DNA of 64,000 bases. It comes from Eretmocerus hayati. Its lineage: Eukaryota; Arthropoda; Insecta; Hymenoptera; Aphelinidae. Position numbers and translations under genes: made by a program. The stretch covers positions 119,878,838 to 119,942,837 of the forward strand of contig CM056744.1 in NCBI GenBank assembly GCA_029851415.1, read 5' to 3'. Under the pieces are notes generated by a model that saw nothing but the letters and a program-made list of their open reading frames with translations, searched no databases and was not told where the DNA came from. How positions within the stretch are numbered: the first letter of the stretch is position 1; every line of letters begins with the position of its first letter. Below, in pieces: positions 5,662 through 37,512 of the stretch.

Positions 5662-6145
5662 TGTTACGTGTTAAGGGTCCTTCAATCCGTTCTCCGCTGA
5701 GCTCCTGGACGCAGCTAGAGGTTGTGTAAAGGTTCGGTCAATGATCCAGAAGACAAGTGGTAGAATGCAATCGGTGTTTATTCAATAAATAATACAATCC
5801 CGAGAGAGACTATAACTCGTGACTCTACTGATTCTATGATACGACGAGGCCAACACTGGCTGCGAATACTCGTCTTAAATGCGTCTACCGCGATGTGGTC
5901 CGGTCAACGATTCGTAATCGACTGAGACTCTAGAAGCCGCTGTTCAGGCCTTTGTTCCGTATTTATATTCTGCTGCAATCCATATCCCTTCTTGCTTTCT
6001 GCTGACGCCTCGTGAGTCGAGTGCGGGCGTACGTGAGTCAGCTCGAGGCCAATGTCCGCCTCTCGCTTGAGGTCACTCATGACGTACCTGAAGCCTGCAC
6101 ATTCTCTACCGGTCAATGAATCGTTACGGACCTAGTCCCGTAACA
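5662..6145 (-). repeat. 3' LTR
   Basis: 484 bp. Read on the minus strand it begins TGTTACGG and ends CGTAACA. A TATA-like box (ATATAAATA) lies at about 5958-5971 and a poly(A) signal AATAAA at 5777-5782, in the order expected for U3-R-U5. It looks identical to the right copy. Confidence 0.95.
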
Positions 6146-6160
6146 CGTCCGTTGGCCGTG
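6146..6160 (+). promoter_or_regulatory. 15-bp motif, copy 1, abutting the 3' LTR
   Basis: CGTCCGTTGGCCGTG starts on the first base after the LTR. Exact copies occur at 21259-21273 and 23971-23985 in the same orientation. In element sense this is where the polypurine tract is expected, yet the sequence is not purine-rich; a purine-leaning stretch (GGAGAGCAAAAA) lies just upstream of it. The role is unknown. Confidence 0.6.
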
Positions 6161-6629
6161 TTTTTGCTCTCCGGAGCAATCATTAAAACGTACAAAAAGA
6201 AAATGTGAAAATATTTCTGAGTATGTATCCTTTGATTTTAAACGTTATCTTACATATATTTAGACCCGAAAATGAAGTACGATTCATACATTAACATGAC
6301 AGGAAATGCTTATTATCTTCGTATTTGTAAAAATTCCATCTCTTTCCCAAGTCTCTCTCGATTTCTTTTTGACAAATCATAACATTAAGGTAAGTTCCTT
6401 CCAAGAAAAATCTTTTTTTTTTCTCCATGCGTACATATGGGTTGAATTTCGGGGGTCATCGTTTATTATCAACATGAATCTTATCCGCTGGTTGTATATC
6501 ATCCAAACAGTAAGAGCTTTCGTTTCTTCTATTACTATCAATAGTTATTTCATCAGTTGGTTACATATCATCCAAAGGGTGGGAGCTTCCGCTCCTTCCA
6601 TCATCAGCATCGTGTATTCCTTCGGTTGG
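6161..6629 (-). other. Env 3' untranslated region with short repeats
   Basis: No gene was seen. Three imperfect copies of a unit of about 65 bp built around TATCATCCAAA lie between about 6483 and 6670. The last copy supplies the end and stop codon of env. An A-rich stretch follows the LTR-adjacent motif. Confidence 0.55.
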
Positions 6630-8601
6630 TTATATATCATCCAAAGAGTGGGAACTTCCGCTCATTCCTTGGATTGGGAGCATTGGTTGACCCATCGGTC
6701 TTTTTACGATTGCGAATTGATCCAGGTTCGTGAGTCCCATGCTTCTTTCTCCTGGTTGAACTGTGTAAGTAACGGGTTGAATAGTAATGCATTCTGGTTG
6801 TCTCGACCATTCAACCGCTGGTTCGTCCGTCTCTCGTTTGCATGTCCTCTTATCTGAAACTGATCTACCAGTGATTAGACAAGGGAACCCCCCCTGGCAA
6901 AGGACCTTCCATGCTACGACTGCTACCACTGCGATGAGGCATACCGTGCCCCCCGTAAGCGTTAATGTATTTTGTAAAGCCTCGAACTTCTTAGACATAA
7001 CTCTGAGTTGACTCATTCCTCGTGCCTTGTTAATAATTTCTTTCAAGTTTTCTCCTTTCTCTAGGGATCTCACGGGCGATTTGCCGCGGAGTTGGATGTT
7101 TGGTACCATTTCTAATTCTACTGCCGGGTTGCCTACTTCATGCGCCTTGTTCCCGTGAAGTATCGACGATAGGTCTATTTGGGTTCCATTAAATAGGCTG
7201 GTCTCTGAAAATGTCGTAATTTGGCGTGACGCCACTAATCTTACATTCTCTGTCCTAGCCCAACAGCCTGGGAACAGCCGAAGCGTGCCCATGCCCTGTA
7301 ACGTCAACTTTCGATTCGTGCCTTGCTCGCAATTGATATACATCTTTTCGGACTCTTTCGTTGAATAAACCCACGTATTCTCGCTCTGGAGTTTCGCCCA
7401 GAATGTTTCCTGCAGTTTTGCTACTTTGAATTCGCAATTAGATAAATTACTGATTTTCCTCCCGGCGATGAGTTTGATTTCGCATGGTGAAAATTCGTCT
7501 ATGTTTCTGACTGGCTCTGTATCCTGACAAACGTAATTCTTCTTAAGGCGTTTGCATTTGCTCAAAGTTTCCGTTGCGATTGGTATATAGCTTTCCGTTT
7601 CCGTGTTCAACGCCGCGTACTCTGCGTCGGGCCATATGTATACGAATATCGAGCTATTACTCTGTTTGACCGGGATAGGGGTAGCCTTATAGAGATCGTA
7701 CTCAGTATGACTTAATAATGGGAATTGGATATAGTAAATAAGGTATGGGTACGAGAACCGGATTGATAAGCTCGCTATTCCTAAGATATCCAGGAAAGAT
7801 TCCGCTCCGTCTGTCTCGGGGAACTTGGCGTCTAACATGGTTTGCGCAATCGTTGACTTTGTTTTTTCGAATACCGCTGGTGGCATAAAGCGTGGGTGCG
7901 GCATACCTCTGTATGCAAACATTACCGCGTTAGTTATTAATTCTGTGTCTAGTTCGTATTGCGTGACGCATCCACTGTATGTCTCCAAGGCTATGAATAA
8001 GTCCCTGAAATCGTCTTCGCGCTTCTCCGCCTGGCTTAGCTTGGTTACCATTGCATCTAGCTTTCCCAGCTCGTTCTGGACGTCTCCGAACTGGTTGTAT
8101 ATGATTTCGGTTTGATTAGCTATCAGACTCGCGAGCTGACCTGTGTGGTTATTATTCTGCTGGATTAGGTCCTTAAGCTCAATTTCAGAGTCCTCGTCTA
8201 GGTTACCGAACAGAATTTTGTCGATTTTCCCGATGATTGGGAACCAAGATCGTTTTGCTCTGCTCTGCGTGGTGCTTGACGTTGTACCCTGTATCATTCC
8301 CGCCAATCTATTCACGCTTCTTTGCGTCTCTTGCGTCCTTGCTCCCAGTAATCGAATTTCTTCCTCGTAAGGGCATGCTAAGAGCTGCCACTTTTTGAAT
8401 AGTTCATCACATTTGTTTTTGAGCTCCGTAAACGTAGAATCAAGATTAGTCCCGTGTGAGAGGTACGGTTGTAAGTCGATTTTCTGCACAACTTTCCACG
8501 ATACTCTGGATGTGTATAACCGTTCCAGCTTTTCCGTGATTAGTCCCGGATTCTGATGTATCGGACGTGTCTCCATATCTCCATCCCTATAACCCGCAAT
8601 C
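6630..8601 (-). CDS. env: Env: fusion-protein-like envelope glycoprotein
   Basis: The 648-residue frame from ATG at 8576 resembles the F-type fusion proteins shared by errantiviruses and baculoviruses. A furin-type site RAKR sits at residues 106-109 and is followed at once by a fusion-peptide-like stretch containing FGNLDEDS. A Cys-rich ectodomain, one membrane span (about 535-558, TVCLIAVVAVVAW) and a cytoplasmic tail of about 90 residues follow. The frame is open upstream of the ATG to 8601, where ATTCTCATTGCAG forms a 3' splice site, so the mature N-terminus and signal peptide probably come from an upstream exon, as in spliced errantiviral env mRNAs. I could not place that exon. No internal stop was seen. 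Confidence 0.88.
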
Positions 8602-9055
8602 CTGCAATGAGAATTTGTTGAAGTTGCGTTACGGGTGTGTGACGTTATATCCCGGGGAGAGTGCTGTTCTGATCGCGAACTACCCGTTGTCGATAACCAC
8701 GAGATTCTTGCGTAGTCGACTGCTGGTCAAGTGTTGGACCCTGTACCGTATGTAATATACCGATAGTTCTAATGATACGTATTCAAGACTTACTATATTC
8801 GCGAGAGTTGAATGGGTGTTTTATTTCGTATGGTTTTTTCTTTGATTTCTGCTGGTATGCCAACTTTCCTCTTTGGACAGTGTCTTTGCGCTTATGTTCT
8901 TTATGCGAGAGTTTTTGCCGCGGGCCTGCAGTTGCATCTCGAATAGCCAAGAATCGGAGTCCACGGTCAGTTTGTCCGTGTGCAACAGAAAACAGAAATA
9001 TGTTCTCGTAAGTAGTCTCGTTTCTACTGACTTTCTCTACTGAGCGGACGAATAA

Positions 9056-9373
9056 ATGTCAATCCTTCGTTCTAGGCTGACTCATATTATCCTATACATT
9101 TTCTTATATTTGATTGGGCGTATGATTTGTAATCGGCTCCGCCTTCGGTACCATATCCGGCCTGTCGCAGTGGTACGTCCTATTAGGCGGGCCATTGAGC
9201 CCATGCCTGATTTTGATGCTATCGTGAGTACCAATCTTATGATGTGGTTTGCCAATTTCTGACATAGGTCAATTAATCATTTCTCTTTTTCCTGCTTCTA
9301 GTTGATGCAGCTTCAACCTTTTATTGCTAGCCGGCAGGTTCATTTCCAGCCTGATGGCTTCTACCTGCGCTAA
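9056..9373 (+). CDS. Small predicted membrane protein, one intron
   Basis: Exons 9056-9223 and 9302-9373 flank a 78-bp intron (GTGAGT ... CCTGCTTCTAG) and join in phase 0 to give 79 residues. An N-terminal hydrophobic segment (HIILYIFLYLIGRMI) is followed by an Arg-rich region and a short tail, suggesting a single-pass membrane or anchored protein. It is transcribed against the element, between env and the next cargo gene. A poly(A) signal AATAAA lies at 9666-9671. The intron length matches neighbouring plus-strand genes, which supports the model. No family was recognised, and a longer transcript with an upstream exon (donor GTAAGT near 9009) is possible. Confidence 0.5.
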
Positions 9374-9965: not shown

Positions 9966-11347
9966 ATGGCTGATATTTCGAACGTTTGCGTGTCCGACAT
10001 CAAACTTGAGCACGGTGTCGAAGATTTTGGATCTGTTAATCCTGAGTTTGATCTGGTGTTCTACGGACACGTCGGGATTGCCCTTGACTCGGCATCTGGT
10101 GTTATCACTGATTTCCCACTTGAGTTCCATCGCGTGCACCCTGGACGCGAACTCATCGACTGTGAGGGTCAACCTGCCCCGATTGTGTATAATATTGATC
10201 CGCGGAGTGATCAGCTCGTGGTGTCCGTGTCTCTCCGCCACGGCAGTCCTCCGACTGATGAGGGTTTGCCTGTGGTGCGTTGTGCCAATCGTGATGAATT
10301 GAGGGCTGTCTCTCCGGTGAGCAGCTCGCTTTTTGAACGCGTCAGGCCTTATTCAGGTGGCCGACATGGGGAATTCATCAAGCTATGCAAGGACTCCTGT
10401 GAAGATGCTGAAGACTTCGTTGATGTGTGCAGTGACGTTACTCCAAGTGGATCCTTGATTGGTTTCCCCGACATCGTTGGATCCGATGTACGTGACAAGG
10501 GTGCTGTTACTAAGGACGATTTATCGGCATCGGCGAGTAGTCAGTTAACCGTGGGTAATGGCTCTTTATGTTCATCTCTCGAGTCCGGTGGCGCGGATCT
10601 TGTTCGTCGGACTCGAGATCTACCTGTTCTAATCGAAATCCGGCGCGACAGTGTGAAGAAATACGCCCGACTGAAGACCGGAGCCTTGAAGAGGCAGAAA
10701 TTGGACCCTAAGTGTTTGCCTAAAAAAACTCGCAGGTCAAGGAGGCGACGGCGTGGGGTCCGCCGATCGCGCGTCGCAAAAGAACCAAGACTTCGTCGCG
10801 ACTCCGTCAAACTGGACATCCCTGAACCTTTGAAGGAAGAGAGCGGTGATTATAGTGGCAGTGAGACCGTCCTGATGGAGGATCTCTCGGATATTGACGA
10901 TGTGTTCCTCGATCCGGCCCTGGGACCCTTGGCCGATCGATTTTATTGTGAATGTCCTCCATCACCTGTCAACATCAGGGATATTCGCGCGCCTCTCTCG
11001 GGTTCTGTCGTTGTGAATCCCATGGCAAATACCTCAATTACTCGACGTGCTGTCAAGGGAGCGCCGGGATTCTTGCGGACTCGCGAGAACCCGCGGCGTC
11101 GCTGTAAGAATAATTTTCGACGAGCCTTCGGCGGTCTGGTGACCGATGCTTCCGATCGGGAGTACTGCCCTGCATGCTGTCTAGCTGCGCGGGATCGTCA
11201 AGCTTTACCTTCTTCTTCGATGTGCTATGCATGCCTGTAAGTATCGGATCCTCTGTGCTTTGTTCTTGGGATTTTACAGAATCAGTTTCATTCATCACCT
11301 TCCCTTTTTTTCCCAGCTCGGATCCCCAAAGTTGGCTCGATTGTTGA
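9966..11347 (+). CDS. Unknown cargo protein with basic and acidic regions and a C-terminal Cys motif
   Basis: ATG at 9966 (context AAGATGG). Exon 1 runs to 11236 and ends two bases into a codon. An 80-bp intron (GTAAGT ... TTTTTTTCCCAG, 11237-11316) leads to a short exon that closes at TGA 11345-11347, giving about 433 residues. The N-terminal 110 residues look folded and beta-rich. A very basic Arg-rich block (about residues 258-285), likely a nuclear signal, is followed by an acidic block (EDLSDIDDVFLDP). The C-terminus has CPAC and CYAC pairs 15 residues apart, a possible zinc site, plus a last Cys from exon 2. I do not recognise the family. A nuclear regulatory role is a guess from composition. 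It lies antisense to the element. Confidence 0.68.
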
Positions 11348-12129: not shown

Positions 12130-12775
12130 GCTTGCGCTGCAGTGCGCATGACCTGTTTCTATGTACCCTGCTTTTATGTCCATTACCGTGCTACGTATAT
12201 ATATATATATATGTATTCCCGAGTTGCGCCGCAGTGCGCATGACCTGTTTCTATGTACCCTGCTTTTATGTCCATTACCGTGCTACGTATATATATATAT
12301 GCATTCCCGAGTTGCGCCGCAGTGCGCATGACCTATTTTTATGTACCCTGCTTTTATGTCTATTACCGTGCTATATACACTGCCACGGCTTGCGCTGTAG
12401 TGCGCATGACCTATTTTTATGTACCCTGCTTTTATGTCTATTACCGTGCTATATACACTGCCACGGCTTGCGCTGCAGTGCGCATGACCTATTTTTATGT
12501 ACCCTGCTTTTATGTCTATTACCGTGCTATATACACTGCCACGGCTTGCGCTGCAGTGCGCATGACCTATTTTTATGTACCCTGCTTTTATGTCTATTAC
12601 CGTGCTATATACACTGCCACGGCTTGCGCTGCAGTGCGCATGACCTATTTTTATGTACCCTGCTTTTATGTCTATTACCGTGCTACGTATATATATATAT
12701 GCATTCCCGAGTTGCGCCGCAGTGCGCATGACCTATTTTTATGTACCCTGCTTTTATGTCCATTACAGTGCTATA
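12130..12775. repeat. 78-bp tandem array, about 8 units
   Basis: The unit runs from GCTGCAGTGCGCATGACC to the next ACTGCCACGGCTT. Central copies are almost identical. The first two and the last carry a (TA)n insert after CGTGCTACG in place of the ATACACTGCCACGGC part. Because 78 is divisible by three, several frames stay open for up to 199 codons with a 26-residue period. I regard these as a by-product of the array rather than a gene. Confidence 0.9.
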
Positions 12776-13010
12776 TAGTAGTGTGCATGGGTCTTCGCCA
12801 TAACCTGCATTTTTACGTCCAATTCTCAGTTTAGCCTGTGAAAGTTTTACACGAAGGACGCTGAGTAAAATTCTTGTGTGCCCGATTGCTGCTGAAAGAT
12901 AGTTGAAGTGCTGTATCCCAAGGTACGTCCCCTGTTTCATTTGTGGTGTATGTATTGGTGCTAGGATAAGGTTCTGGATGTGAAGGTACCAGATAGGATG
13001 CTACATGTTT

Positions 13011-14200
13011 ATTATAAGCTCTCAGGACCCTTGGATATGGTCATATATACTAGATGGGTCCTAGATCTATCGTTGTAGATGATAATATAGCTGATTCAGT
13101 CCTTATTAGTGTCAGGATTCGAGTTTTAGTTGAGGTTCCATCAAAATTTCATGCTTCGTCTGACTTGTGAATTTATAAAACTCCTTGGCTATCAGGATTT
13201 TATCTGAGCTCTCAGGACCCTTGAAAATGATTGGATATACTGAATGGGACATGAATCCATCATTCTAGATGTTAATATAGTTGGTTTGGCCATTATTAAT
13301 GTCAGGATTCAAGTTTTAGTTGACACTTATTCGAAACCCCATGTTTCGGTTGACTTGTGAATTCATGTAACTTCTTGGCTATCAGAATTTTATCTGAGCT
13401 CTCAGGACCCTTGAAAATGATTGGATATGCTAGATGGGACATTAATCTATCATTCTAGATGATAATATAGTTGGTTTTGCCATTATTAATGTCAGGATTC
13501 AAGTTTTAGTTGACACTCATTCGAAACCCCATGTTTCGGTGAATGTATGAATTTACATAACTTCTTGGCTATCAAAATTTTATCTGGGCTCTCAGGACTA
13601 TTGAAAATGGTTGGGTATGCTAAATGGGGCCTGAATCTATTATTCTAAATGATAATATAGTTGGTTTGGCCGTTACTAATGTCAGGATCCAAGTTTTAGT
13701 TGAGGCTCAATCGAAATCCCATGTTTCGGTGAATGTATGAATTTACATAACTTCTTGGCTATCAAAATTTTATCTGGGCTCTCAGGACTATTGAAAATGG
13801 TTGGGTATGCTAAATGGGGCCTGAATCTATTATTCTAAATGATAATATAGTTGGTTTGGCCGTTACTAATGTCAGGATCCAAGTTTTAGTTGAGGCTCAA
13901 TCGAAATCCCATGTTTCGGTGAATGTATGAATTTACATAACTTCTTGGCTATCAAAATTTTATCTGGGCTCTCAGGACTATTGAAAATGGTTGGGTATGC
14001 TAAATGGGGCCTGAATCTATTATTCTAAATGATAGTATAGTTGGTTTGGCCGTTACTAATGTCAGGATCCAAGTTTTAGTTGAGGCTCAATCGAAATCCC
14101 ATGTTTCGGTGAATGTATGAGTTTACATAACTTCTTGGCTATCAAAATTTCATCTGGGCTCTCAGGACTCTTGAAAATGATTGGATAATCTAAATGAAGT
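13011..14200. repeat. 190-bp tandem array, six units plus a partial
   Basis: The string (A/G)GCTCTCAGGAC recurs near 13018, 13208, 13398, 13588, 13778, 13968 and 14158, a period of 190 bp. The units starting at 13581, 13771 and 13961 are nearly identical, while the outer units are more diverged. A degenerate copy is visible at about 14648-14700. No coding potential. Confidence 0.9.
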
Positions 14201-15577: not shown

Positions 15578-15610
15578 TTTCCCTTCCCTAGGTATTTGAA
15601 AATTCGCGTC

Positions 15611-20978: not shown

Positions 20979-21190
20979 TCCTGATCCTTACTGCTTGCCG
21001 CTTTTTGCGTCTGAATTTCTTCTCTTTGATCGGGCTCTTCGTCGTATTGAATTGCCATTTGACGTCCACACCCGTATCCGATTGCACTGCGCAGTTGATC
21101 ATCGGTTGCCATCCGCCTAATTCTGCTTGGTTTCCAGATTTCTTCGGAATTTGCTACCGATGTGAAATTACTGAAGCACTTTCCGGACAA
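20975..21190 (-). CDS. Upstream small ORF overlapping the PPP1R15-like start
   Basis: A 71-codon frame from ATG at 21190 whose TGA overlaps the ATG of the PPP1R15-like gene (ATGA). It has no recognised domain. It could be an upstream ORF with termination-reinitiation, or a 5' exon if the GTAAGG just before its end is used as a donor. It begins 69 bp from the 15-bp motif that lies between it and the divergent RING gene. Confidence 0.4.
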   Translation of the reverse strand: MSGKCFSNFTSVANSEEIWKPSRIRRMATDDQLRSAIGYGCGRQMAIQYDEEPDQREEIQTQKAASSKDQE

Positions 21191-23705: not shown

Positions 23706-23752
23706 TTATTGATTCTGTATAATTGATAAATATGTCCGCAGGTGAATATAAA

Positions 23753-27313: not shown

Positions 27314-30300
27314 TCAAAATTCGTCATCGTTGTTACTGTGGTGGTTTTTAAGCTTATTTATATGAACCACTCGCGTTTGGTCGCCCTTCTTAATCTTCGC
27401 ATTGTTTTTCTTGTAATCGATTTCCAGAATCTCGCATGGGCCTACATAATGCTTGTCTCCCTTTCCCTGTCTTGGTTCTTTCAACAAGTACACCGTTTCT
27501 CCCTCCCTGAAGCTTTTTGGGTTGATTTTTTGATCGTGGTAGAACTTGGATTTGAACTTAGACTGGACGAGATTCATGGCTGCTAAGGTCCTGAGCTGAA
27601 TTTTTGCTTCCGCGACCTCCGCAAGGTATTGGTCATAAGTCATAAGCTGATCGCGAGGCGGGAATCTCGACGGTGTTCTAGCTCTTTTACCAAACACGAT
27701 TTCGTGTGGGGAATATCCAAGTCCTTCGTGTTCAGTTGTGTTGTACGCATGTTGTGCAAGGGGCAGAAGTTCATCCCAGTTGGTATTCTCATTCAGATAC
27801 ATGGCTAAGTATTCATTTAGAGTGTGATGCATCCGTTCAATCGCTCCATTCGATTGTGGTCGATATGTCGAGGTGCAAAACTTATTGATTCTAAACATTC
27901 TTGCAAATTCCTCGAATACTCGGCCCATGAAGTGAGACCCTTGATCGGTGAGTATTGTAACCGGTGTGCCAAAGTAGCAAATAAATTGTTCTACAAAGAC
28001 CTTCGCGACTACTCTGGTTGTTGCTTCGGTTGTTGGTGTTAGTATGCAATATTTGCTGAAGCAGTCTTGGATTGTCAAAATGTAAACGTTTCCGTGTTTT
28101 GTGGGTGTTTTTGGTCCTACAAAATCCATCGATATCTTTTCGAATGGCGATGCCGGGGTATCAGTAATGATCATTGGCAACCGTGTTTTTACCCTCACGA
28201 GTTTGTCTGTTTGGCACGTTGCACAGCCTCTCACGAATGCTCGAACATCAGCTTGCATGTTCCGCCAGTAGAATTCACTTGCTATCCTGTCATATGTTTT
28301 CGTAATTCCTTTGTGGCCTCCTATCGCGGACTCGTGATATTCTTTTATGATACGAAAGCGCTCTTCCCCGGGTGGCACAGGTAAATTGTTCTTGAACAGC
28401 ACGATTGATATTTGACATTTTTTGAAAATACGATTACATTGCTCTACAAAATACCCCCATGTATTTTTATTTAGCATTTCTAAATCTCTTATTATCCCAA
28501 GCGTCTTGATACCCTTGTGTACGAGCAATTCTTTGAGTACTTTGAGAGTCGACGTGATGTCTGGTTTCAATGCTGACGCATGGGTTGTCTGTTTCACCAC
28601 TAATCCGAACACCTCTTTGTCTCTATATCCAGAGACGATTACTTCTCCTATTGCTCGAGTTGTGCTGAGCAATTCGTCTTGGTCCAGATATTTCCTTTCT
28701 ATCAAAGCGCTGAGTACTTCTGATTCCACCTGAACATCTGCTGGAACTGCGTAAACGAGATTGTCAAAATGTGCAAACGGATGGTCATTCACGATTTTGA
28801 CGCCCGTGAATATTGCTACATCTTCTTCTTTCTCCACCCATGACGGCATTTCCCGTGGACTGCGAGCCTCCGCAACCAAGTATCTGGCCATTACATCGTT
28901 CCTGAGGCTCCCTCTGTTGCTGACACCCGGCTCTTCAGTGAATTCGGTAACATCGATTGGTGATGCCTGATCGTCTTGATGTGATAGCTCTTCGGCTTGT
29001 GTTATTCTTGGTGTCTCATTTACTTGTTCTTGCGACCCTTCATCATGTACTGACAGTTCATCTACTTCCATGTTACCCTCAAAAAGGTCCCTTATAGTGA
29101 GTCCATTTGCTGCCTCTTGTTCGTCCCGTAGCCCCTGATTCACTAATGGCGTGTAGTGTTTTATCCTTAGACGAAGGTGAATGAAATCGTCCACGCTATT
29201 TGCTCTGAAGTATGCATAACGTATCCTATCTGAGCAGAGTACGTGGACGCACACATTTATGTTAAATTCTCGAGAAAATATATATAGTGTGTCCGCATCC
29301 CCGTACGCTGTTTGAGATGTGAGTATCTTTATGGCTGCTTCTGGATCCCCGCAATGAGGTAAATGTTGGCTATCGAGTAATTTTTGGCGCAGCATTGGAG
29401 CGTTAATATCCCATCCGAATATCTTTATCAATGAATAGAATAGGCAACTTCCCGGCGGGGTTGTTTGGATGTCCGGATCGTGAACCAATGTATGGTGAGG
29501 TTGGGCACACTCGTTATGCTCCTCGTAATTTTGGAATCTCACTATTGATGAATTGGATGTTTGTTCGTTTAGAATCGTGAAATTGCCGGCGTAGTCCCAA
29601 GACATATCTAGGAGTGCTGGTTCGCGGTCATTCGTCGGGTTGAGTACGGGGACTTCTTGCGACGCGGGTGTGCTCGAGGCTGAGTTGGTGTTTGCATCAG
29701 TATTCTGGTTCCCCTGGAGTGGTTCATTATTCGCCAGACCTCTGGTATCGGCTACTTCGGAGTCCGGGAGTGTGATTGATCCCGTAAGTTGTTGCTTGTT
29801 TTGCTCCGAATCGGTTGCATCTTGCATCGATAGCCCGTTCTCCTGATGACATGACGCTAAGATGTCTGATTCATTGATATTCTCCTTGCCAAGCCCTCCG
29901 AAATCGGTTGATGGCTCCATGCCGTTCTCGATATCCCCGTTGGTAGGTAGATTCGGCCTTACTTGTACGCCTCGTTCTTCATTTCGACGATAGATGGCAG
30001 TTTCCCCGATCGTAAATGGTGTGCGCAAAATTTCGCTTGAGTTACCTACCGTTGGTATTTCTAATCTAGTAAGCTCTACTCTTGGTTGGTATTCGGGTCG
30101 ATTGTACCTGCTTTGCATGTGGTTTGATGGTTCGCCCGTTTGTGGTCTTTGTTCAATTGATTCTTGCTCTTCATTCCATACGAGCACCTGTACCCCTATC
30201 CGCCCCCCGGACGAAAATCGTTCGACATTCCACTTCAATTCAGGTTTGTCCTTCTTTGATTCTATTTGCATAGAATCTCTCCCGTGCGTCTGCGTTCTCT

Positions 30301-33300
30301 CGATACTGATATTCAACTCTGAATCTTGTTTGGGTGCCCCTACGTACTGCGTCGAATCGGTCTCCATCAAGCAATTATCAAGGTCCACCTCCTTGCTCTT
30401 TGAACTTACGAGTGTTCCAGGTTGTAACTCTTCAGACTCTTTTCCGAGGCTTTCACTTATCTCTCCTGATTCATTCACTGTATTACCAAACATTTTCCGG
30501 TTTCTGTGAGAGAGTGGCGGGTTGATTTCTCTTTGAGGTCTCTGAATTATTAGATCTTTCCTTGGCGTACTCGTGATCTGAATTTCCGCCCGGATATGCT
30601 GTTCATCCCTCACGCGTGGTAGCTTGCTTGCCCTGTTGTTTGCCTGACTAAGGATGGGTTCTGCTCCTGGATGATCTCCGGTCTCCTCCAGCATCTGACA
30701 TGTGGCAAATTTCCTCCCTGTTCGCCCCCTGTCCTCTTGTGTCCGTAATTTACGTTGCGCCATCTTGATCCCGCTCCAATCCTCGTCATTATCATCACTG
30801 GAGAAGAGGTCGCTCGAGTCACTCTCTTCCGAGACCGCTTCATCTAAGGTTGATTGTTTTTCTCTTGGCTCTTGATTACCCTCATCCTGTTTGCTGTGCT
30901 TGCTTTCGTCTAAATTGATGCGTTTTTTCTCCGGAGATTTTTCAACCTGCCCTAACTCTCCCCAATCAATTTCCCTCGTTCCTTGGTCACTTCCATCCTC
31001 TCGTTCCCTCTTTTGGCTTCTAGTTGTTACCACGAATACTTGAGCGCTCGAGATTCCTGCTCCCTCGGATTCCTGTCTTTCTGCTAGCTCATATAATTCA
31101 GCTCTTGGCCTTTCTGGGTTTTCTTCGCCTTCTTTAAGGACCGGGTTCCTAGATAATGCATCAGCATTCGGGTTTTTGCTACCTGGACGGTATATCACGT
31201 CGAATTCGCATCCCCTTAGTGATGCCTTCAGCCGGTTGAACCTTAAATCGGGTTTCTTGGTGTTGTGGAAATGTTTCAATGGTTCGTGATCCGTGACTAC
31301 CGTAAACTTTCTACCGTAAAGGAAATGCCTGAATTGTTCTGTGGCGAAGACTACCGCTAGAAGCTCACGATCATATGTACTGTAACGTAATTCTGGGCCC
31401 TTTAAGCATCTCGATGCATAGGCGCAGGGTCGATCTTGATTTAACTTTCCCTGGCTCAAAATTGCTCCAATCGCGTAGTCCGAGGCATCTGTCGTTACGA
31501 GGAACTCCTCGTCTAGTTTAGGAGCCTGAAGTATTGGTTCTTGGCATAGTGCATTTCTCAATTTCTCGAAAGCTTCTTGTTGTTCTGTGCCCCAGTCGAA
31601 TTTTGTCCGATCTCTCAGAAGTTGATTCAGTGGGTATGCTATTTCCGCGAAGTTTTTGACGAAACGTCTGTAATATGATGCTAGGCCTAAAAATTGTTTG
31701 ACTTTCTTCGGAGTTGTGGGTGCGGGATATTTTCGAACTGCCTCTATCTTCTTCGGATCCATCCGGATTCGTCCGTTTCCTGCGATGTGACCCAAGAAAC
31801 TCGCCTCCTCCTGTAGGAACTGGCATTTCGCAGGTTCGATTGTAAGATTCGCTTCGTCGAGTCTCTCCATAAGTAGCCTGAATCTTTCCCCGTGTTCTTG
31901 TAAATCTTTTGCGAAGACGATCATGTCGTCTAGATACACCCTTACTCCTTCTAGATTCGCTAGCACCCTATCCATCAAAGCCTGGAAAGTACATGGTGCG
32001 TTACATAGTCCCATACCCATTCTTTTATATTGGAATAATCCAATAGGGGCTTGAAAGGCTGTCAGGTGTTCTGAGCCCTCATCCATGGGGATTTGATAGA
32101 ATCCTGACTTGAGGTCGATTGCAGTGATGTACCTTGCATTCGCGACACTTTCGATTATATCTGTGGTGATCGGTAACGGATAGTTGTTTCCTACCGTGAT
32201 GCTGTTGAGTTGACGAAAGTCTGTCACCATTCTCCATTTCACTTTCCCATTCGCGTCCGGTTTTTTCTTCACTATCCACATTGGGCTTGAATATGGTGAC
32301 TCTGATTCTGTGATTATGCCTGCCTCGAGTAATTCATTAACTTGCCGTTGCATCTCCTCTCTGATTTCGGGGGGGTGTCGATACCTTTTAGCTTTTATAG
32401 GCTTATCTGTTGTTGTGACTATTTTGTGTGTTACTAGATGCGTTGCCTTGAGTTTTTCTCCCGGGAGTCCAAATATACCCGGTCTCTCTTTAATAAGATC
32501 TCTGATGTGTTGGATTTCCTCCTGATTCAGTCTCTCCAACGTCTTTGGGTCTATTCTCTCAAACACTCTTGTAGCTCTATCTTCTTTCTCTCCCACTTGC
32601 GCCCTCAGTATTGATATATTTTCCTCAACTTCCCCTAATTCTACTGCTTCATTCGATTCTAGTTCTCCCTTTGCTTGGGTATACTCCACCTCTTCGTATG
32701 CTTCCAAAGTAACTTCTGGTAATTCTATTTCCACTTCTTCATCATTTGTATTCGTGCATATCGCATATGCTCTTCCATTAATATTCTTCGCGACGAAATC
32801 CCCCAATATTATACCCGGTCCCATGTCTTGTATCCCCACGTAACCAACTGCTTCATTATTCTTCACACGAATATATATGACTTGTGCACTATTAGGAGGA
32901 ATCCGGAATCGATCCTCGATCACGAAAGGGATTTTCTCATTGGCGAAGTGCAAACATTTCTCCTTAGCATCAATAATTCCCCCATGCTCCTCAAATTCTC
33001 TCCACCCAAGGAGCCCGTCCGTGTTAATTGCAAAGTCATTTGAAACTATATGTATATCGCATTTAAACCCGTTCAGCTTCGCTGTAACTTTCCCTAAAGT
33101 AAGGCATTCCCCTGCTGTAACCCCACTGATGGCAATAACGTATTCCCTATCAATATGTGTACCTTCTTTGATACATCTAGCCTTCAAGAGTGTGACATCC
33201 GCCCCCGTGTCAGCGTAAAAGTGACAAGTCTCTTTACTGAAATCCTCGCATCTCAATTCGACTATTGGGTGTCTCCTCTGATTAGCATCCAGCAAACGTA

Positions 33301-33325
33301 TGGAAACGTGTCGTTTTGGTATCAT
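27314..33325 (-). CDS. pol: Pol: protease, RT, RNase H, OTU-like domain, integrase
   Basis: 2003 codons counted from an ATG 8 bases after the Gag stop. Domains in order: retropepsin (DTGAD, 39-43; GLLGW, 104-108), RT (YLDD, 464-467), RNase H (TTDASDYAIGA, about 611), a low-complexity acidic/Gln-rich linker (about 735-1270), an OTU-like cysteine protease domain (about 1275-1396), then an integrase with an HHCC finger (H..H..CATC), a D,D,E core and a C-terminal tail. RT and integrase are of Ty3/gypsy-errantivirus type. Most gypsy Pol proteins are about 1000-1300 residues; the excess is the linker plus OTU. Expression is probably by -1 frameshift from gag, because the frame is open upstream to the slip site. 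Catalytic residues I could check are present. Confidence 0.93.
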   Translation of the reverse strand: MIPKRHVSIRLLDANQRRHPIVELRCEDFSKETCHFYADTGADVTLLKARCIKEGTHIDREYVIAISGVTAGECLTLGKVTAKLNGFKCDIHIVSNDFAINTDGLLGWREFEEHGGIIDAKEKCLHFANEKIPFVIEDRFRIPPNSAQVIYIRVKNNEAVGYVGIQDMGPGIILGDFVAKNINGRAYAICTNTNDEEVEIELPEVTLEAYEEVEYTQAKGELESNEAVELGEVEENISILRAQVGEKEDRATRVFERIDPKTLERLNQEEIQHIRDLIKERPGIFGLPGEKLKATHLVTHKIVTTTDKPIKAKRYRHPPEIREEMQRQVNELLEAGIITESESPYSSPMWIVKKKPDANGKVKWRMVTDFRQLNSITVGNNYPLPITTDIIESVANARYITAIDLKSGFYQIPMDEGSEHLTAFQAPIGLFQYKRMGMGLCNAPCTFQALMDRVLANLEGVRVYLDDMIVFAKDLQEHGERFRLLMERLDEANLTIEPAKCQFLQEEASFLGHIAGNGRIRMDPKKIEAVRKYPAPTTPKKVKQFLGLASYYRRFVKNFAEIAYPLNQLLRDRTKFDWGTEQQEAFEKLRNALCQEPILQAPKLDEEFLVTTDASDYAIGAILSQGKLNQDRPCAYASRCLKGPELRYSTYDRELLAVVFATEQFRHFLYGRKFTVVTDHEPLKHFHNTKKPDLRFNRLKASLRGCEFDVIYRPGSKNPNADALSRNPVLKEGEENPERPRAELYELAERQESEGAGISSAQVFVVTTRSQKREREDGSDQGTREIDWGELGQVEKSPEKKRINLDESKHSKQDEGNQEPREKQSTLDEAVSEESDSSDLFSSDDNDEDWSGIKMAQRKLRTQEDRGRTGRKFATCQMLEETGDHPGAEPILSQANNRASKLPRVRDEQHIRAEIQITSTPRKDLIIQRPQREINPPLSHRNRKMFGNTVNESGEISESLGKESEELQPGTLVSSKSKEVDLDNCLMETDSTQYVGAPKQDSELNISIERTQTHGRDSMQIESKKDKPELKWNVERFSSGGRIGVQVLVWNEEQESIEQRPQTGEPSNHMQSRYNRPEYQPRVELTRLEIPTVGNSSEILRTPFTIGETAIYRRNEERGVQVRPNLPTNGDIENGMEPSTDFGGLGKENINESDILASCHQENGLSMQDATDSEQNKQQLTGSITLPDSEVADTRGLANNEPLQGNQNTDANTNSASSTPASQEVPVLNPTNDREPALLDMSWDYAGNFTILNEQTSNSSIVRFQNYEEHNECAQPHHTLVHDPDIQTTPPGSCLFYSLIKIFGWDINAPMLRQKLLDSQHLPHCGDPEAAIKILTSQTAYGDADTLYIFSREFNINVCVHVLCSDRIRYAYFRANSVDDFIHLRLRIKHYTPLVNQGLRDEQEAANGLTIRDLFEGNMEVDELSVHDEGSQEQVNETPRITQAEELSHQDDQASPIDVTEFTEEPGVSNRGSLRNDVMARYLVAEARSPREMPSWVEKEEDVAIFTGVKIVNDHPFAHFDNLVYAVPADVQVESEVLSALIERKYLDQDELLSTTRAIGEVIVSGYRDKEVFGLVVKQTTHASALKPDITSTLKVLKELLVHKGIKTLGIIRDLEMLNKNTWGYFVEQCNRIFKKCQISIVLFKNNLPVPPGEERFRIIKEYHESAIGGHKGITKTYDRIASEFYWRNMQADVRAFVRGCATCQTDKLVRVKTRLPMIITDTPASPFEKISMDFVGPKTPTKHGNVYILTIQDCFSKYCILTPTTEATTRVVAKVFVEQFICYFGTPVTILTDQGSHFMGRVFEEFARMFRINKFCTSTYRPQSNGAIERMHHTLNEYLAMYLNENTNWDELLPLAQHAYNTTEHEGLGYSPHEIVFGKRARTPSRFPPRDQLMTYDQYLAEVAEAKIQLRTLAAMNLVQSKFKSKFYHDQKINPKSFREGETVYLLKEPRQGKGDKHYVGPCEILEIDYKKNNAKIKKGDQTRVVHINKLKNHHSNNDDEF
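29138..29503 (-). other. OTU-like protease domain inside Pol
   Basis: Pol residues about 1275-1396. SCLFYSLIKIFGW aligns with the OTU catalytic-Cys helix (usual form DGNCLFRA), giving Cys1294. A central alpha/beta stretch with a GDADTLYIFSREFNINVCV-type strand follows, and RIKHYTPLV provides the His of the usual HY(x)xL box (His1390). The Asp before the Cys loop is replaced (PPGSC). OTU proteases cleave ubiquitin or ISG15-like chains; several viruses use them against host defence. It sits between the linker and the integrase finger, so it might be released by the retroviral protease. Function is inferred. Confidence 0.75.
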
Positions 33326-33333
33326 GTGTTTCT

Positions 33334-36300
33334 TTAGTTCGTCCTGCTCGACGTCGCGGGTTGGCGCCGAGCATCTTGCGAGTTTAAAGACCCGGTAGAG
33401 TTATTGGTTGGCCCTTGGTAGTTGGGTTGTTCGTTTCCTCTTGAATTTTGACTGAAGTTGTTAGTTCTTGGGTCACGTCGTTCGTTTCGTGCAAAGTATT
33501 CGCCTCGATCATTGTGAAATGGGCTCCTATAATTCCGATTTTGATTCGTGTAATTCGGTCGATTATTACGAATATCATCATACCTGCGTTCGAAATTCCT
33601 ATTATTGTAGCTCTGATTGTAATTACGAGGTTCATGTCCACCGCGAAAACCGGTGTTTCGGTCATTGTTATTGTTATAGTTGTCATACCGTGTCGGTCTT
33701 TGTCCGTTGTGTCTAAAACTATTGCCGTTCCCATAGTTACCGCGGCCTCGTATGCCGTTGTCGTTATAATAATCTTGACTGCGGTTATTATAGTTCCTCA
33801 TCGGTGGTCTACCCCCGTTATCGCCGCGATATGTAGCATTATACTGTGAATCATCCATTCCAGGATTCCGGTGTCTATCACGCGATGGGCTATTGCGACC
33901 GGTCGGTGTCCTTGATCTGCTGTCATTTCTAATTTCGCTTCTCGCGGTTTCCCGAGGACGTTCAATCCGATCCTTTCTAACCAGTCCCGAATCGACCGCT
34001 TCGCCTAGTGCTTGGCACTCACTCCTTTCATGGCCCATGATGCTGCAATAGTTGCAAAATTTAGATTCCTGCTTCTTCTTCGGGCACTCTCTTTCAAAAT
34101 GACCACGCGCATGACAATATCGACACTCGTCCGAAGCCACTGCTAAACGGATATTTGCCGATTCTGTCGTCCCCAGCGCGCCTGGATGTATTTCTCTTAT
34201 CTTCTTATCCATGAGTGCTTCGAATACTGGCAATAGTGTCCCTATATCACCCACTGGTCTTTCCATGAACAAGTTCCGTGCGCTAGTTTTATTTTCAAAA
34301 TTGACGGCTTCGGAAATGGCGTCGCGCAAGGTTTGGGGATTCGTTGACCTAACTTGGTGTTGAAGAGCTCCCTCGAGTCCAAACAGGAATTGCTGTAAAG
34401 CCTCAGTATCCGCGTTGTATTTGTATGTTTTCCGTTCGAAATCCTTCAACTTTTGATCCGAATCGTATACGTTGAGCAGGCGGTTGTGTAATGTTTGGAC
34501 ACGTAATCCGTAATCACCGGCGCCCTCTCCTGGTCTTTGTTTGACTAATTTCAACTCGGCTAACACTCGATCGGCACCTCCGACTCCGCTGTATTGCGTG
34601 GTCATATCGATAAGCAAGCGTTCTACTGAATTATATTGCGTGAGCCTTGCGGTATAACCTTCGGCTGCGCGGCCTTTGAGTTTACTCGCTAGTGCCGATA
34701 TAATCCATGGTTCGGAATCCGGCCCGTATTCCTCCACGATGTAACGTACCGATTTACAAAATAACGCCAACATATCGGGATTACCATCGTACGGCATGAT
34801 CTGATTAAGTGCTTGGTGCAAGGAGAGACGGAACTTCGATCCTTGGCGGCGTTCAAAGTTTTGATTCTCAGATGAATTTTTCACTTGCGAACGACGTACC
34901 GTCGCGTGATTTGGATCCTGGTGGTTTTCGTGCGCGGTGGTTCCCCGGTCATCGGTATTGGGTGCAAACATCTCGGGGTATTCGTCGTCGGAAGAATCGG
35001 ACTGGTCTACATATGCTTTCTCATGAATTCTCCCTTGTCGATTGTCCTTTCGGGGTCGAGCTTGGTATTGCTGATTGTTTGAAGCAGTCGGTTGGTGGTT
35101 ATTGCTGGGATTCTGTGGCATTTGCGGTTCCTGACTTGGGTTTGCGCGTGATTGTCCGTTTTCGGGGTTAAATTTGAAGTTCTGTTGGACATACATATTC
35201 TGGACGCGGAGTCGCTCAGTCTGATTGTCAGTGGTGAATCTCATGTCCTGTTCGCTTCGGTCTTGTGATTTCTGGGATATAGCATGTGAATTTAATTGTT
35301 GGTTCACGCGGGGGTTCATTCTTTCGGGGCGTGATACGGTGTCACCACTATGTTGTTTATGGCTGAAATTTGTATTGTATCGAACGCGAGACTCTGCGTC
35401 CATACTCGGAAGTCGGCGGCTAGAGTCATTATTCGGTAGCTCGTTGTTGCAATATCGCGGTTGGTGGATGGAACCTTGGTCAAATTGAACGCGAGACTCT
35501 GCGTCCTTACTCGAAAGTCGGTGGCTAGAGTCATTTTTACGACCTACGCGTGACTGAGCGTCCATACTCGAAAGTCGGGGGCTGCAGTCGTTAACGTTCC
35601 GGAGTCCAGCGTCCATACTCGAAAGTCGGGGGCATGGACTTCGGTCGTTCTCATTACGATATTGTGAATCTAAGCTATGGAAGCGACGTCCAGATGTTTC
35701 CTTGAGTTGACTGCGAGATCGCGCAACCTCAATTCCCGATCGATGATTTGACAAATCTTCTGAACCCCACACGTCGTCATTGGCTGTAGCGTAATTCATT
35801 TGTTTCGTTGGATATTCGGACCAAGTGTCTGCGTTATTGAGGGTCTGTGAATAGGTTTTCGTCGGTGGTGTCCGAGGGGAATTGGATTCGTCTATGCGTG
35901 AGGATTCTGCGTTCATTTGCGAGGTTTTGAATTGTTCGTAGCCCTGCGTGAAGTCGTCAAATACGAGACCAGTTGTTTTAGGCCGTGTTCCCGTAGCTAT
36001 TTGCTGTGACTCGAGATGTGACTTGATCGTTTCCAAAAGAGCCACTTCTGTTTCCGAAAAATAATCGGGGTTCAACGACAGTACTCGTGTTATATCACGT
36101 ATCGCTATCTCCGCGTGTATAGTTCCCGCGTGTTCTAAACCAAGATCAGCCATTATTAACGCGAAGTAGGCGGCGCGCGCCCTTAAGTCCCCTTTGCCCA
36201 TCTCATCATAGTACCTTTCTTTAAGGTCTCGAGCCTCTAAAACGACTATTTCATGCGGGTCAGGGATGCCTCCCGTGGCTTCTGCTGGTCCGTTCGAATC

Positions 36301-36573
36301 GGGATTGTCAGGGGTATTAGTGGGCATAACTTGCAGCGATTCCGCAGTCATTTTGCTGATGTCCTGTCCTTTCGCCATTCTACTAGTTCCCGATAAGAGA
36401 TGGTTCAATTGCACAGTGGCCAATTTCTGACGCGCTAGACCGAGGATGCACAGTCGCGAGTATGGGGATAGTCGGTCGATCAGTTCTAGGTGGTCAATGA
36501 TGTCTTCTATTGGCTCGCAAGCGAGCGTTGCTCGACGTAGATTCGGTATACTAGGATAATTGCGACCTTTCAA
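33334..36573 (-). CDS. gag: Gag, unusually long, with two zinc knuckles
   Basis: 1079 residues. The N-terminal 100 residues are helical. Residues about 200-560 are low-complexity and contain a degenerate repeat around SSMDAxSRV (4-6 copies, about 300-420) with Asn/Ser/Arg-rich sequence. A capsid-like helical core follows (about 575-790). Two CCHC knuckles lie at about 813-852 (CRYCHARGHFEREC and CNYCSIMGHERSEC). The tail is Asn/Arg/Gly/Tyr-rich, with an RGG- and prion-like composition. Typical gypsy/errantivirus Gag is about 400-500 residues, so most of the extra length is disordered. It packages the RNA genome; the long disordered arms may help with a genome several times normal size, but that is speculation. 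The start may instead be the Met near residue 66. Confidence 0.9.
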   Translation of the reverse strand: MKGRNYPSIPNLRRATLACEPIEDIIDHLELIDRLSPYSRLCILGLARQKLATVQLNHLLSGTSRMAKGQDISKMTAESLQVMPTNTPDNPDSNGPAEATGGIPDPHEIVVLEARDLKERYYDEMGKGDLRARAAYFALIMADLGLEHAGTIHAEIAIRDITRVLSLNPDYFSETEVALLETIKSHLESQQIATGTRPKTTGLVFDDFTQGYEQFKTSQMNAESSRIDESNSPRTPPTKTYSQTLNNADTWSEYPTKQMNYATANDDVWGSEDLSNHRSGIEVARSRSQLKETSGRRFHSLDSQYRNENDRSPCPRLSSMDAGLRNVNDCSPRLSSMDAQSRVGRKNDSSHRLSSKDAESRVQFDQGSIHQPRYCNNELPNNDSSRRLPSMDAESRVRYNTNFSHKQHSGDTVSRPERMNPRVNQQLNSHAISQKSQDRSEQDMRFTTDNQTERLRVQNMYVQQNFKFNPENGQSRANPSQEPQMPQNPSNNHQPTASNNQQYQARPRKDNRQGRIHEKAYVDQSDSSDDEYPEMFAPNTDDRGTTAHENHQDPNHATVRRSQVKNSSENQNFERRQGSKFRLSLHQALNQIMPYDGNPDMLALFCKSVRYIVEEYGPDSEPWIISALASKLKGRAAEGYTARLTQYNSVERLLIDMTTQYSGVGGADRVLAELKLVKQRPGEGAGDYGLRVQTLHNRLLNVYDSDQKLKDFERKTYKYNADTEALQQFLFGLEGALQHQVRSTNPQTLRDAISEAVNFENKTSARNLFMERPVGDIGTLLPVFEALMDKKIREIHPGALGTTESANIRLAVASDECRYCHARGHFERECPKKKQESKFCNYCSIMGHERSECQALGEAVDSGLVRKDRIERPRETARSEIRNDSRSRTPTGRNSPSRDRHRNPGMDDSQYNATYRGDNGGRPPMRNYNNRSQDYYNDNGIRGRGNYGNGNSFRHNGQRPTRYDNYNNNNDRNTGFRGGHEPRNYNQSYNNRNFERRYDDIRNNRPNYTNQNRNYRSPFHNDRGEYFARNERRDPRTNNFSQNSRGNEQPNYQGPTNNSTGSLNSQDARRQPATSSRTN
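33345..33388 (-). promoter_or_regulatory. Gag-Pol -1 ribosomal frameshift signal
   Basis: On the minus strand a canonical slippery heptamer T TTA AAC (33388-33382) lies in the Gag frame. After an 8-nt spacer comes a hairpin with a perfect 6-bp stem (TGCTCG 33373-33368 with CGAGCA 33350-33345) and GC-rich loop pairs. A -1 slip enters the pol frame, which has no stop between the heptamer and the pol ATG. The Gag stop lies 46 nt past the heptamer. This is the standard arrangement for retroviral -1 frameshifting. Confidence 0.82.
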
Positions 36574-37004
36574 ATCTCACTATATCCGGAATGTCATAAG
36601 GTGTGAACTGGGGTATAAGATTTGCATACGGGAATGAGTCAAACAGATGCAATCAGCATGCAATAACCACGCGTCCTGCTATTAGGATGAAATTTATCGT
36701 ATAACTATGGCGTTCTAGAGCATATGGTGGCTATAGTATAGGAATTACTAACCGTATATATGGTAAGATCGAACGAATCAGTTATTTTCTATAGTCCTTT
36801 GCCTCGCGACTCTCCCCACGAGGGATATATATGTAAGGGCAGAATCGAATTGACTTACCCTGAGGCTACTAAGATGATGGTGAAGCAGATCTGCATTGAC
36901 ATCCTTCCTTCTTCCTTACTGTTATTGATGATTTTGTTGGTGGTGGTTCAGTGGAAAAACGCGACGCGGATGACGCGTTTAAATTCTTCGTAACCTTTAC
37001 AACG
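36574..37004 (-). other. 5' leader between primer site and gag
   Basis: 431 bp without a convincing frame. It is expected to hold packaging signals and the donor for spliced env mRNA; I could not fix either by eye. Confidence 0.5.
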
Positions 37005-37024
37005 GATTCCCGGCCGATGCACCA
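37005..37024 (-). promoter_or_regulatory. Primer binding site, complementary to tRNA-Gly
   Basis: The plus strand here reads as the 3' end of a tRNA including CCA (GATTCCCGGCCGATGCACCA). It agrees with the acceptor/T-arm end of insect tRNA-Gly(GCC) over 20 nt as I know that sequence. It lies 4 nt inside the 5' LTR, the correct place for minus-strand priming. Confidence 0.8.
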
Positions 37025-37028
37025 GATT

Positions 37029-37512
37029 TGTTACGTGTTAAGGGTCCTTCAATCCGTTCTCCGCTGAGCTCCTGGACGCAGCTAGAGGTTGTGTAAAGGT
37101 TCGGTCAATGATCCAGAAGACAAGTGGTAGAATGCAATCGGTGTTTATTCAATAAATAATACAATCCCGAGAGAGACTATAACTCGTGACTCTACTGATT
37201 CTATGATACGACGAGGCCAACACTGGCTGCGAATACTCGTCTTAAATGCGTCTACCGCGATGTGGTCCGGTCAACGATTCGTAATCGACTGAGACTCTAG
37301 AAGCCGCTGTTCAGGCCTTTGTTCCGTATTTATATTCTGCTGCAATCCATATCCCTTCTTGCTTTCTGCTGACGCCTCGTGAGTCGAGTGCGGGCGTACG
37401 TGAGTCAGCTCGAGGCCAATGTCCGCCTCTCGCTTGAGGTCACTCATGACGTACCTGAAGCCTGCACATTCTCTACCGGTCAATGAATCGTTACGGACCT
37501 AGTCCCGTAACA
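37029..37512 (-). repeat. 5' LTR
   Basis: 484 bp, apparently identical to 5662-6145. TATA-like box at about 37325-37338 and AATAAA at 37144-37149 on the minus strand. It is flanked on the right by the TTAT duplication (37513-37516). Confidence 0.95.

What the first reader, a model, noticed from the sequence alone, without database searches (positions are those of the whole stretch)
5662..37512. A 31.85-kb retrovirus-like LTR element carrying its own gene cargo
Matching 484-bp LTRs, a 4-bp duplication, a primer site, gag, pol and env bound about 18 kb of extra sequence with at least six genes. Errantiviruses are normally 7-9 kb. The largest LTR elements I know of (for example planarian Burro) reach this size, but I know of none with an antisense, intron-containing accessory block of this kind. 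Apparent LTR identity and open frames suggest a recently active element.
Basis: partly seen in the sequence, partly recalled or inferred. Interest (0 to 1): 0.96.

Follow-up and report, generated by a model that had tools for sequence, protein, structure and literature searches.

The report
Giant wasp retrovirus with two-strand genes
The genome of the parasitoid wasp Eretmocerus hayati holds a 32,000-letter retrovirus-like element, found full length at five separate sites, that carries a set of extra genes on its opposite strand which selection has preserved, two of them related to ubiquitin ligases and likely to help the element by changing how the host tags its proteins.

Summary
Confirmed. 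Window 5662-37512 is one of five collinear full-length copies (31.7-33.0 kb) in the E. hayati assembly. Each has an LTR pair without a mismatch and its own 4-bp target duplication, so the whole unit, cargo included, was inserted at independent sites. gag has CCHC knuckles; pol has RT-RNaseH-integrase plus a ~950-aa insert with a tentative OTU-like stretch; env is Baculo_F type. The antisense block between pol and env encodes two SIAH-type RING proteins, a C2H2 protein with a 79-bp intron (annotated in another copy) and a 424-aa protein; all four show purifying selection (dN/dS 0.20-0.31). Among 12 LTR pairs, the 7 with pol have both RING genes and the 5 without have neither. The layout is wider: 35 of 40 scored pol loci have RING genes on the opposite strand 3' of pol, and five sister-family LTR pairs span 34-38.5 kb. 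Nearest in kind are plant antisense-ORF elements and planarian Burro; searches showed no metazoan env element with such a block. Cargo function is inferred; expression and phylogeny were not tested.

The parts
5658..5661 (.). target-site duplication TTAT, left copy
5662..6145 (-). 3' LTR (484 bp)
6630..8601 (-). env, main exon, Baculo_F fusion-protein type, furin-like RAKR; predicted to begin at the acceptor 8602/8601
   Evidence: Pfam PF12259 E 9.6e-40 for 6630-8576
9966..11240 (+). antisense gene, 424 aa, no Pfam match
   Evidence: dN/dS 0.25 against the homologue in copy H
12132..12773 (.). tandem array, 78-bp unit
13018..14196 (.). tandem array, 190-bp unit
16076..18596 (+). antisense gene with C2H2 fingers and a weak JmjC match; exon 16076-16198, intron 16199-16277, exon 16278-18596
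   Evidence: gene model P0001, annotated on contig C1, mapped onto the window; dN/dS 0.20 against copy G
19694..20293 (-). sense ORF, 199 aa, no Pfam match; its last 56 aa are 87.5% identical in copy G
20550..20987 (-). sense open frame; 73 aa are 38% identical to an ORF of the sister family
22746..23705 (+). antisense SIAH-type RING gene 1 (first ATG 22752)
   Evidence: Pfam Sina_RING 2e-9; SIAH1 1.8e-17; dN/dS 0.29-0.31
25504..26637 (+). antisense SIAH-type RING gene 2, perhaps with upstream exons
   Evidence: Pfam Sina_RING 2.5e-7; dN/dS 0.26; 25016-25450 pN/pS 0.38, 24678-24965 pN/pS 0.85
27314..33325 (-). pol: RT, RNase H, then about 950 extra residues, then integrase
29057..29599 (-). 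OTU-like stretch within pol (tentative)
   Evidence: no Pfam match in the window's own piece; fold search inconclusive
33334..36573 (-). gag, two CCHC knuckles, no Pfam match
36859..36902 (-). predicted env signal-peptide exon, donor GG|GTAAGT; in frame with the acceptor at 8602/8601 (28.26-kb intron)
   Evidence: not shown experimentally
37007..37024 (-). primer-binding site TGGTGCATCGGCCGGGAA
37029..37512 (-). 5' LTR (484 bp)
37513..37516 (.). target-site duplication TTAT, right copy

Best explanation
This is a 31.85-kb endogenous retrovirus-like LTR element that sits, opposite-strand gene block included, at five independent insertion sites, and the block's SIAH-type RING proteins, possibly with an OTU-like stretch in Pol, would likely redirect host ubiquitin tagging in the element's favour. 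Shown: one unit with LTRs and its own target duplication at each of five sites; gag, pol and env; four antisense genes under purifying selection; the RING pair in each of the 7 pol-bearing copies among 12 LTR pairs; the same layout in sister elements. Predicted from sequence: a sense RNA of about 31 kb is packaged and reverse transcribed; env is made from a message that skips a 28.3-kb intron; the antisense genes are read from their own or a 3'-LTR promoter, and their introns survive replication because the packaged RNA is the other strand. Inferred and untested: the RING proteins tag a host restriction or silencing factor (or Gag) for breakdown, much as retroviral accessory proteins exploit host ligases (recalled).
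For: Five collinear copies A-E; different perfect 4-bp duplications and 0 of 484 LTR mismatches in each. Antisense genes: dN/dS 0.20 (737 codons), 0.31 and 0.26 (318 and 377 codons), 0.25 (409 codons, Fisher p 4e-26); wrong frames 0.79-1.9 for the first three. RING pair in 7 of 7 pol-bearing LTR pairs and 0 of 5 others. RING genes opposite and 3' of pol at 35 of 40 pol loci; 54 same-strand RING pairs and no opposite-strand neighbours within 8 kb among 150 RING matches. Sense-strand A excess in 60 of 60 overlapping 1-kb windows inside (mean 0.22, range 0.095-0.385) against a mean of 0.035 (range -0.099 to 0.182) in 61 outside. Intron 16199-16277, within matched stretches of copies B, C and E.
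Against: No expression, packaging or enzymatic evidence. Non-coding control stretches on the + strand gave dN/dS-like values down to 0.36 and 0.52 in single frames, so the RING-gene values, which rest on one comparand (copy G), are clear but not far below the lowest control. The stretch 24678-24965 shows no selection. The RING proteins match no SIAH substrate-binding domain, so their target cannot be guessed. The OTU-like call is weak: no Pfam OTU hit in the window's own piece, Pfam 0.053 and PDB OTU1 0.2 for a relative's piece, folds inconclusive. The JmjC match is below cut-off and not seen in the shorter homologue P0003. Copies F, H, J, K and L have no RING gene match, so derivatives do not need the pair in cis. 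Genome lists were capped: pol 40 of 232 candidates, RING 150 of 235.
Confidence: 0.6

Rival explanations
1. The conserved antisense genes serve the element in the nucleus as regulators of its transcription or silencing, comparable to HTLV HBZ or Grande gene23, and the RING domains act as interaction modules rather than as ubiquitin ligases.
For: C2H2 fingers in one cargo protein and basic stretches in others; plant antisense ORF products can localise to the nucleus (PMC7264820, passages); no substrate-binding domain was found with the RING.
Against: Two RING genes are kept side by side across families, which fits paired E3 function better; nothing tested directly.
Confidence: 0.25
2. The block is passenger DNA: host genes or other mobile elements trapped between the LTRs and carried without benefit.
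For: The block holds long stretches without conserved frames and tandem arrays, and pol-less copies do without most of it.
Against: Purifying selection on all four antisense genes; the same layout beside pol genes only 65-72% alike; strand bias like the rest of the element.
Confidence: 0.05
3. The copies spread as DNA (segmental duplication or LTR-LTR recombination) and not by reverse transcription, and so need no 31-kb RNA.
For: The size is far above usual retroviral genomes (recalled).
Against: Each of five sites has its own 4-bp duplication exactly at the LTR tips and an LTR pair without mismatches; the printed flanks (16 bases a side) differ between sites (by eye).
Confidence: 0.03
4. The antisense genes mainly make double-stranded RNA or piRNA precursors that limit the element.
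For: Antisense transcripts of LTR elements have been proposed to do this (PMC7264820, passages).
Against: Protein-level constraint is not needed for that.
Confidence: 0.07

Closest known systems
Burro giant Gypsy-like elements of planarians (PMC6431247, passages read)
   Same: LTR element over 30 kb in total with gag, RT-RH-IN, an env-like region and ubiquitin- or apoptosis-related accessory domains.
   Different: Internal region up to 25 kb against 30.9 kb here; many accessory domains lie in a sense polyprotein and env sits in frame between gag and pol; the word antisense does not occur in that paper's main text.
Grande, RIRE2 and Retand elements of plants (PMC7264820 and PMC11963269, passages read)
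   Same: Conserved ORFs antisense to gag-pol between pol and the 3' LTR, tandem arrays there, non-autonomous derivatives.
   Different: Retand internal regions are 7.4-12.9 kb; its sense ORFs there show no env features; products carry TRP28 or SMC-like domains, no RING proteins in the passages read.
Errantiviruses / insect endogenous retroviruses (gypsy, ZAM)
   Same: Gypsy-type pol, Baculo_F-type env, spliced env predicted.
   Different: Normally 7-9 kb (stated in the finding; recalled) without an antisense block; the primer tRNA differs from those I recall.
SIAH/sina E3 ligases
   Same: RING match above the Pfam cut-off and a weak SIAH zinc-finger match.
   Different: The domain sits at the C-terminus after a long N-terminus without Pfam match; no substrate-binding domain found; the cargo frame is continuous where the host's own SIAH frame is broken.

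Membership tests
Ty3/Gypsy LTR elements (Metaviridae) | LTR pair, TG..CA ends, short target duplication | tested here: met
Ty3/Gypsy LTR elements (Metaviridae) | gag with CCHC knuckles and pol with order RT-RNaseH-integrase | tested here: met
Ty3/Gypsy LTR elements (Metaviridae) | reverse transcriptase groups with that family in a tree | not tested
Errantivirus | env of baculovirus F type | tested here: met
   PF12259 E 9.6e-40
Errantivirus | env from a spliced message | not testable with these tools
   in-frame donor and acceptor predicted
Errantivirus | genome of about 7-9 kb with gag, pol, env only | tested here: not met
   31.85 kb with an 18.7-kb block between pol and env
Burro | env in frame between gag and pol in one sense polyprotein | tested here: not met
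   env is a separate ORF 3' of pol
Plant antisense-ORF elements (Grande/Retand) | conserved antisense ORFs between pol and 3' LTR | tested here: met
Plant antisense-ORF elements (Grande/Retand) | TRP28 domain | tested here: not met
   not among Pfam matches at E <= 1 for the four antisense proteins
SIAH E3 ligases | Sina RING | tested here: met
   above cut-off for both proteins
SIAH E3 ligases | SIAH-type zinc finger | tested here: inconclusive
   E 0.0011 and 0.0093, below cut-off
SIAH E3 ligases | substrate-binding domain (PF03145) | tested here: not met
   not found at E <= 1
SIAH E3 ligases | ubiquitin ligase activity | not testable with these tools
   needs an assay
OTU cysteine proteases | OTU profile match and catalytic Cys/His | tested here: inconclusive
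   Cys and His columns shared with P0008; Pfam OTU E 0.053 for P0008's piece only, none for the window's; folds uninformative
JmjC proteins | JmjC profile match | tested here: inconclusive
   E 0.0016, below cut-off; model too poor to use

The most novel reading that the evidence does not exclude
E. hayati hosts a whole clade of giant, env-bearing, two-strand-coding retroviruses, 32 to 38.5 kb long, perhaps the largest genomes known to be copied by a retroviral reverse transcriptase, which carry a private ubiquitin toolkit (a paired antisense RING ligase module and a deubiquitinase-like domain built into Pol) to disarm host defence.
Probability: 0.45. Interest if true: 0.95.

Novelty: new variant of a known kind. 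Interest (0 to 1): 0.88.

Why it matters
It shows that an animal LTR element with env can keep about 31 kb between its LTRs through separate insertions, with genes on both strands and an antisense intron; that is above the 25-kb internal region reported for Burro (PMC6431247, passages). If confirmed at the RNA level it would make two open questions testable: what limits retroelement genome length, and whether animal endogenous retroviruses keep accessory genes against host defence as exogenous retroviruses do. The host, a biocontrol parasitoid with a recent Gypsy burst (PMC13116730, abstract and passages), offers several young copies.

Tried and rejected
Assembly join: rejected, because four other sites carry the same unit. 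Passenger cargo: rejected on codon evidence. Viral-contig scans with RING gene 1, the C2H2 protein and pol found no relatives. Protein searches: with the C2H2 protein, 5 matches, all E. hayati, among the 7997 candidates scored; with RING gene 1, two weak matches of unnamed source among 4598; with the pol insert, one relative of unnamed source, P0008, among 6850. The fold of the C2H2 protein's N-terminal part failed (pLDDT 32). The fold of the OTU-like piece was poor (pLDDT 49), and the rows shown for it (50 of 211 and 50 of 79) hold no OTU protease, which excludes nothing. Rfam and tRNA scans of the window: nothing. One codon comparison (env A vs H) was out of frame and is not used. Paper searches: the listings showed no report of this element; they cover an open-access library only, and I opened five papers, each in part.
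Full report
Observation. The window is C4:119878838-119942837 of a 692-Mb assembly. Its contig lengths equal those recorded for E. hayati proteins, 204,958,428, 192,470,813 and 122,604,546, so the host is the aphelinid wasp Eretmocerus hayati. The element spans 5662-37512. LTRs of 484 bp match at every base, and TTAT is duplicated outside them. It reads on the minus strand: LTR, primer site, gag (two CCHC knuckles), pol (RVT_1, RNase H, H2C2, rve), an 18.7-kb block, env (Baculo_F, E 9.6e-40), LTR. The internal region is 30,883 bp.

Independent copies. An LTR search scored 40 of 123 candidates. From these I took 12 same-strand LTR pairs, 12.7-33.0 kb long, leaving aside one pair 70.9 kb long, an inverted pair and the unpaired LTRs. 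Copies A (window), B C3:122812635, C C1:140943108, D C2:180091348 and E C1:199349489 are collinear with the window along their length; D lacks about 190 bp near 16.27-16.46 kb, which includes the end of the intron and the start of the next exon of the C2H2 gene, and E has longer tandem arrays. Their duplications are TTAT, ATAC, CAGA, CTGA and GCAG, and their LTR pairs have 0 of 484 mismatches. Of the 12 pairs, 11 have a perfect 4-bp duplication; the twelfth (L) has TGAG if its last LTR bases are read as TA. Of nine LTRs without a partner in that list that I examined, four are solo LTRs with a perfect duplication; of the other five, three are followed by the primer site, and two have no matching duplication. 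This is the pattern of separate integrations of the whole unit.

Cargo and copy type. By searches with the two RING genes and the pol RT piece, A-E, G and I have all three; F, H, J, K and L have none. So 7 of 7 pol-bearing copies have both RING genes. The two RING searches scored all their candidates; the pol search scored 40 of 232, so for J and L, which I did not read inside, the absence of pol rests on a capped list. F, H and K were read and show no pol match. The C2H2 gene is in A-E and, at 76%, in G, not in I. F, H and K keep env sequence (interrupted in K); gag is nearly whole in H, broken in K and a fragment in F. H keeps an open, 46%-identical homologue of the 424-aa gene; F has two copies of it in inverted order, one of which differs from H's at 2 of 1239 bases; K shows none. 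G's first 3.4 kb was not read.

Selection. Between A and G (gag 93%, RT end of pol 95% in DNA), Nei-Gojobori dN/dS is 0.16 for gag, 0.06 and 0.04 for the two ends of pol, 0.26 for the pol insert, 0.31 and 0.26 for RING genes 1 and 2. Wrong frames give 0.79-1.6 for gag, insert and RING genes. Six control stretches on the + strand, three frames each, give 0.36-1.3 apart from one short outlier at 2.96; some overlap possible exons or the sense ORF, so they are not clean. The C2H2 gene gives 0.196 over 737 codons against G, and 0.35, 0.26 and 0.28 against three more diverged loci. The 424-aa gene gives 0.25 over 409 codons, though dS is near saturation. I read this as cargo kept for its function, not baggage. 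The stretch 24678-24965 upstream of RING gene 2 shows no such signal.

Wider clade. One search lists 18 matches to RING gene 1: seven in copies A-E, I and G, one of 74% at C4:28.32 Mb, and 10 of 68-70%. All of those 10 lie about 6-11 kb from a pol match on the opposite strand. A Pfam Sina_RING scan scored 150 of 235 candidates. Set against the 40 loci into which the 63 pol matches collapse, 35 of 40 have a listed RING on the opposite strand 3' of pol within 20 kb, none has one on the same strand, and 54 RING pairs run on one strand with no opposite-strand neighbours within 8 kb. With 150 matches in 692 Mb, chance would put one in such a 20-kb stretch about 0.4% of the time (simple arithmetic). 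A sister-family copy at C4:56.06 Mb has both RING genes, the integrase end of pol on the other strand, the same primer site and TGTTACG...CGTAACA LTR ends. Its LTR search scored 40 of 95 candidates. Eight LTR pairs that I examined span 19.4-73.5 kb, five of them 34.2-38.5 kb. Six of the eight have a perfect 4-bp duplication, one has it after a one-base shift and one is ambiguous; among the five it is three, one and one. Their interiors were read only in small part, so nested inserts are not excluded, least of all for the 52.4- and 73.5-kb pairs.

Age of the association. The sense strand is A-rich in 60 of 60 overlapping 1-kb windows of the interior, cargo genes included (mean skew 0.22), against a mean of 0.035 in 61 windows outside, though single outside windows reach 0.18. 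With the cross-family conservation (RING gene 1 54% over 136 aa, RING gene 2 41% over 347 aa) this points to long residence. The likely host SIAH gene at C4:6.126 Mb (best Pfam score) is split into two reading frames within the stretch where the cargo genes are continuous, which would fit capture from a spliced message; that is inference. Between A and H the LTR (about 99%) and the LTR-to-env stretch (96%) are far more alike than the 424-aa gene (67%), and between A and G the C2H2 gene is the odd one out (76%). I infer recombination among lineages.

Mechanism. A leader ORF (MSMQICFTIILVASG) ends at a consensus donor and joins in frame to an acceptor just before env; this predicts an env message lacking 28,257 nt. 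The intron 16199-16277 of the C2H2 gene, taken from a gene model annotated on another copy's contig, is antisense to the presumed packaged RNA, so it would survive replication; it lies within matched stretches of B, C and E. The host genome paper says its annotation used 28 transcriptomes (PMC13116730, passage); I did not see those data, nor check that this gene model comes from it. For function I commit to ubiquitin redirection by the RING pair, possibly balanced by an OTU-like stretch in Pol; this step is untested. The OTU-like stretch rests on a Cys/His pattern shared with P0008 and weak profile scores.

Comparison. Burro exceeds 30 kb with an internal region up to 25 kb (PMC6431247, passages); here the internal region is 30.9 kb, and the sister family would be larger. 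Plant elements have conserved antisense ORFs of unknown function (PMC7264820, PMC11963269, passages). OTU domains occur in Ginger transposases (PMC2836005, passages). The host paper reports a recent Gypsy burst; in the abstract and passages I read it does not mention this element. I file it as a Gypsy-type LTR element by domain order, with an insect-retrovirus type env, and as a new variant of the giant and antisense-coding kinds.

On rereading the calls I corrected the primer-site coordinates, the RING-to-pol distances (6-11 kb), the state of copies F and K, and the list of capped searches, and I added the low control values.

Noticed in passing
window 879-5642: A DIRS-like retroelement (reverse transcriptase, tyrosine recombinase, weak Dam-type methyltransferase matches) with 120-nt inverted ends lies directly beside the LTR element.
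   Followed up: partly
window 557-761 and 37642-37846: A 205-nt inverted repeat, 92% complementary, brackets both the DIRS-like and the LTR element, perhaps the ends of an older transposon into which both inserted.
   Followed up: no
window 40644-45143: Satellite of 70/142-bp units, about 63 copies, G+C-rich.
   Followed up: no
window 50943-60145: Nested long inverted repeats (arms up to 453 nt, 83-96% complementary), palindrome-like.
   Followed up: no
L054, L055 (C3:89035671-89053121): Pol-less derivatives of the same LTR family (copies F, H, K) keep env sequence and, in H, nearly whole gag; J has almost the same length as H, so such forms may be mobilised in trans.
   Followed up: partly
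G000 C4:28.29-28.45 Mb: A cluster of diverged copies of the C2H2 and RING cargo genes.
   Followed up: no
P0005 (QAD02_007061) and P0004 (QAD02_007050): Public gene models fuse cargo pieces with pol-insert or apparently unrelated pieces, so annotation of these loci can mislead.
   Followed up: no
G000, whole assembly: 150 scored Sina_RING matches (of 235 candidates) in one wasp genome, 108 of them in same-strand pairs; element-borne copies could inflate a gene-family expansion analysis.
   Followed up: partly
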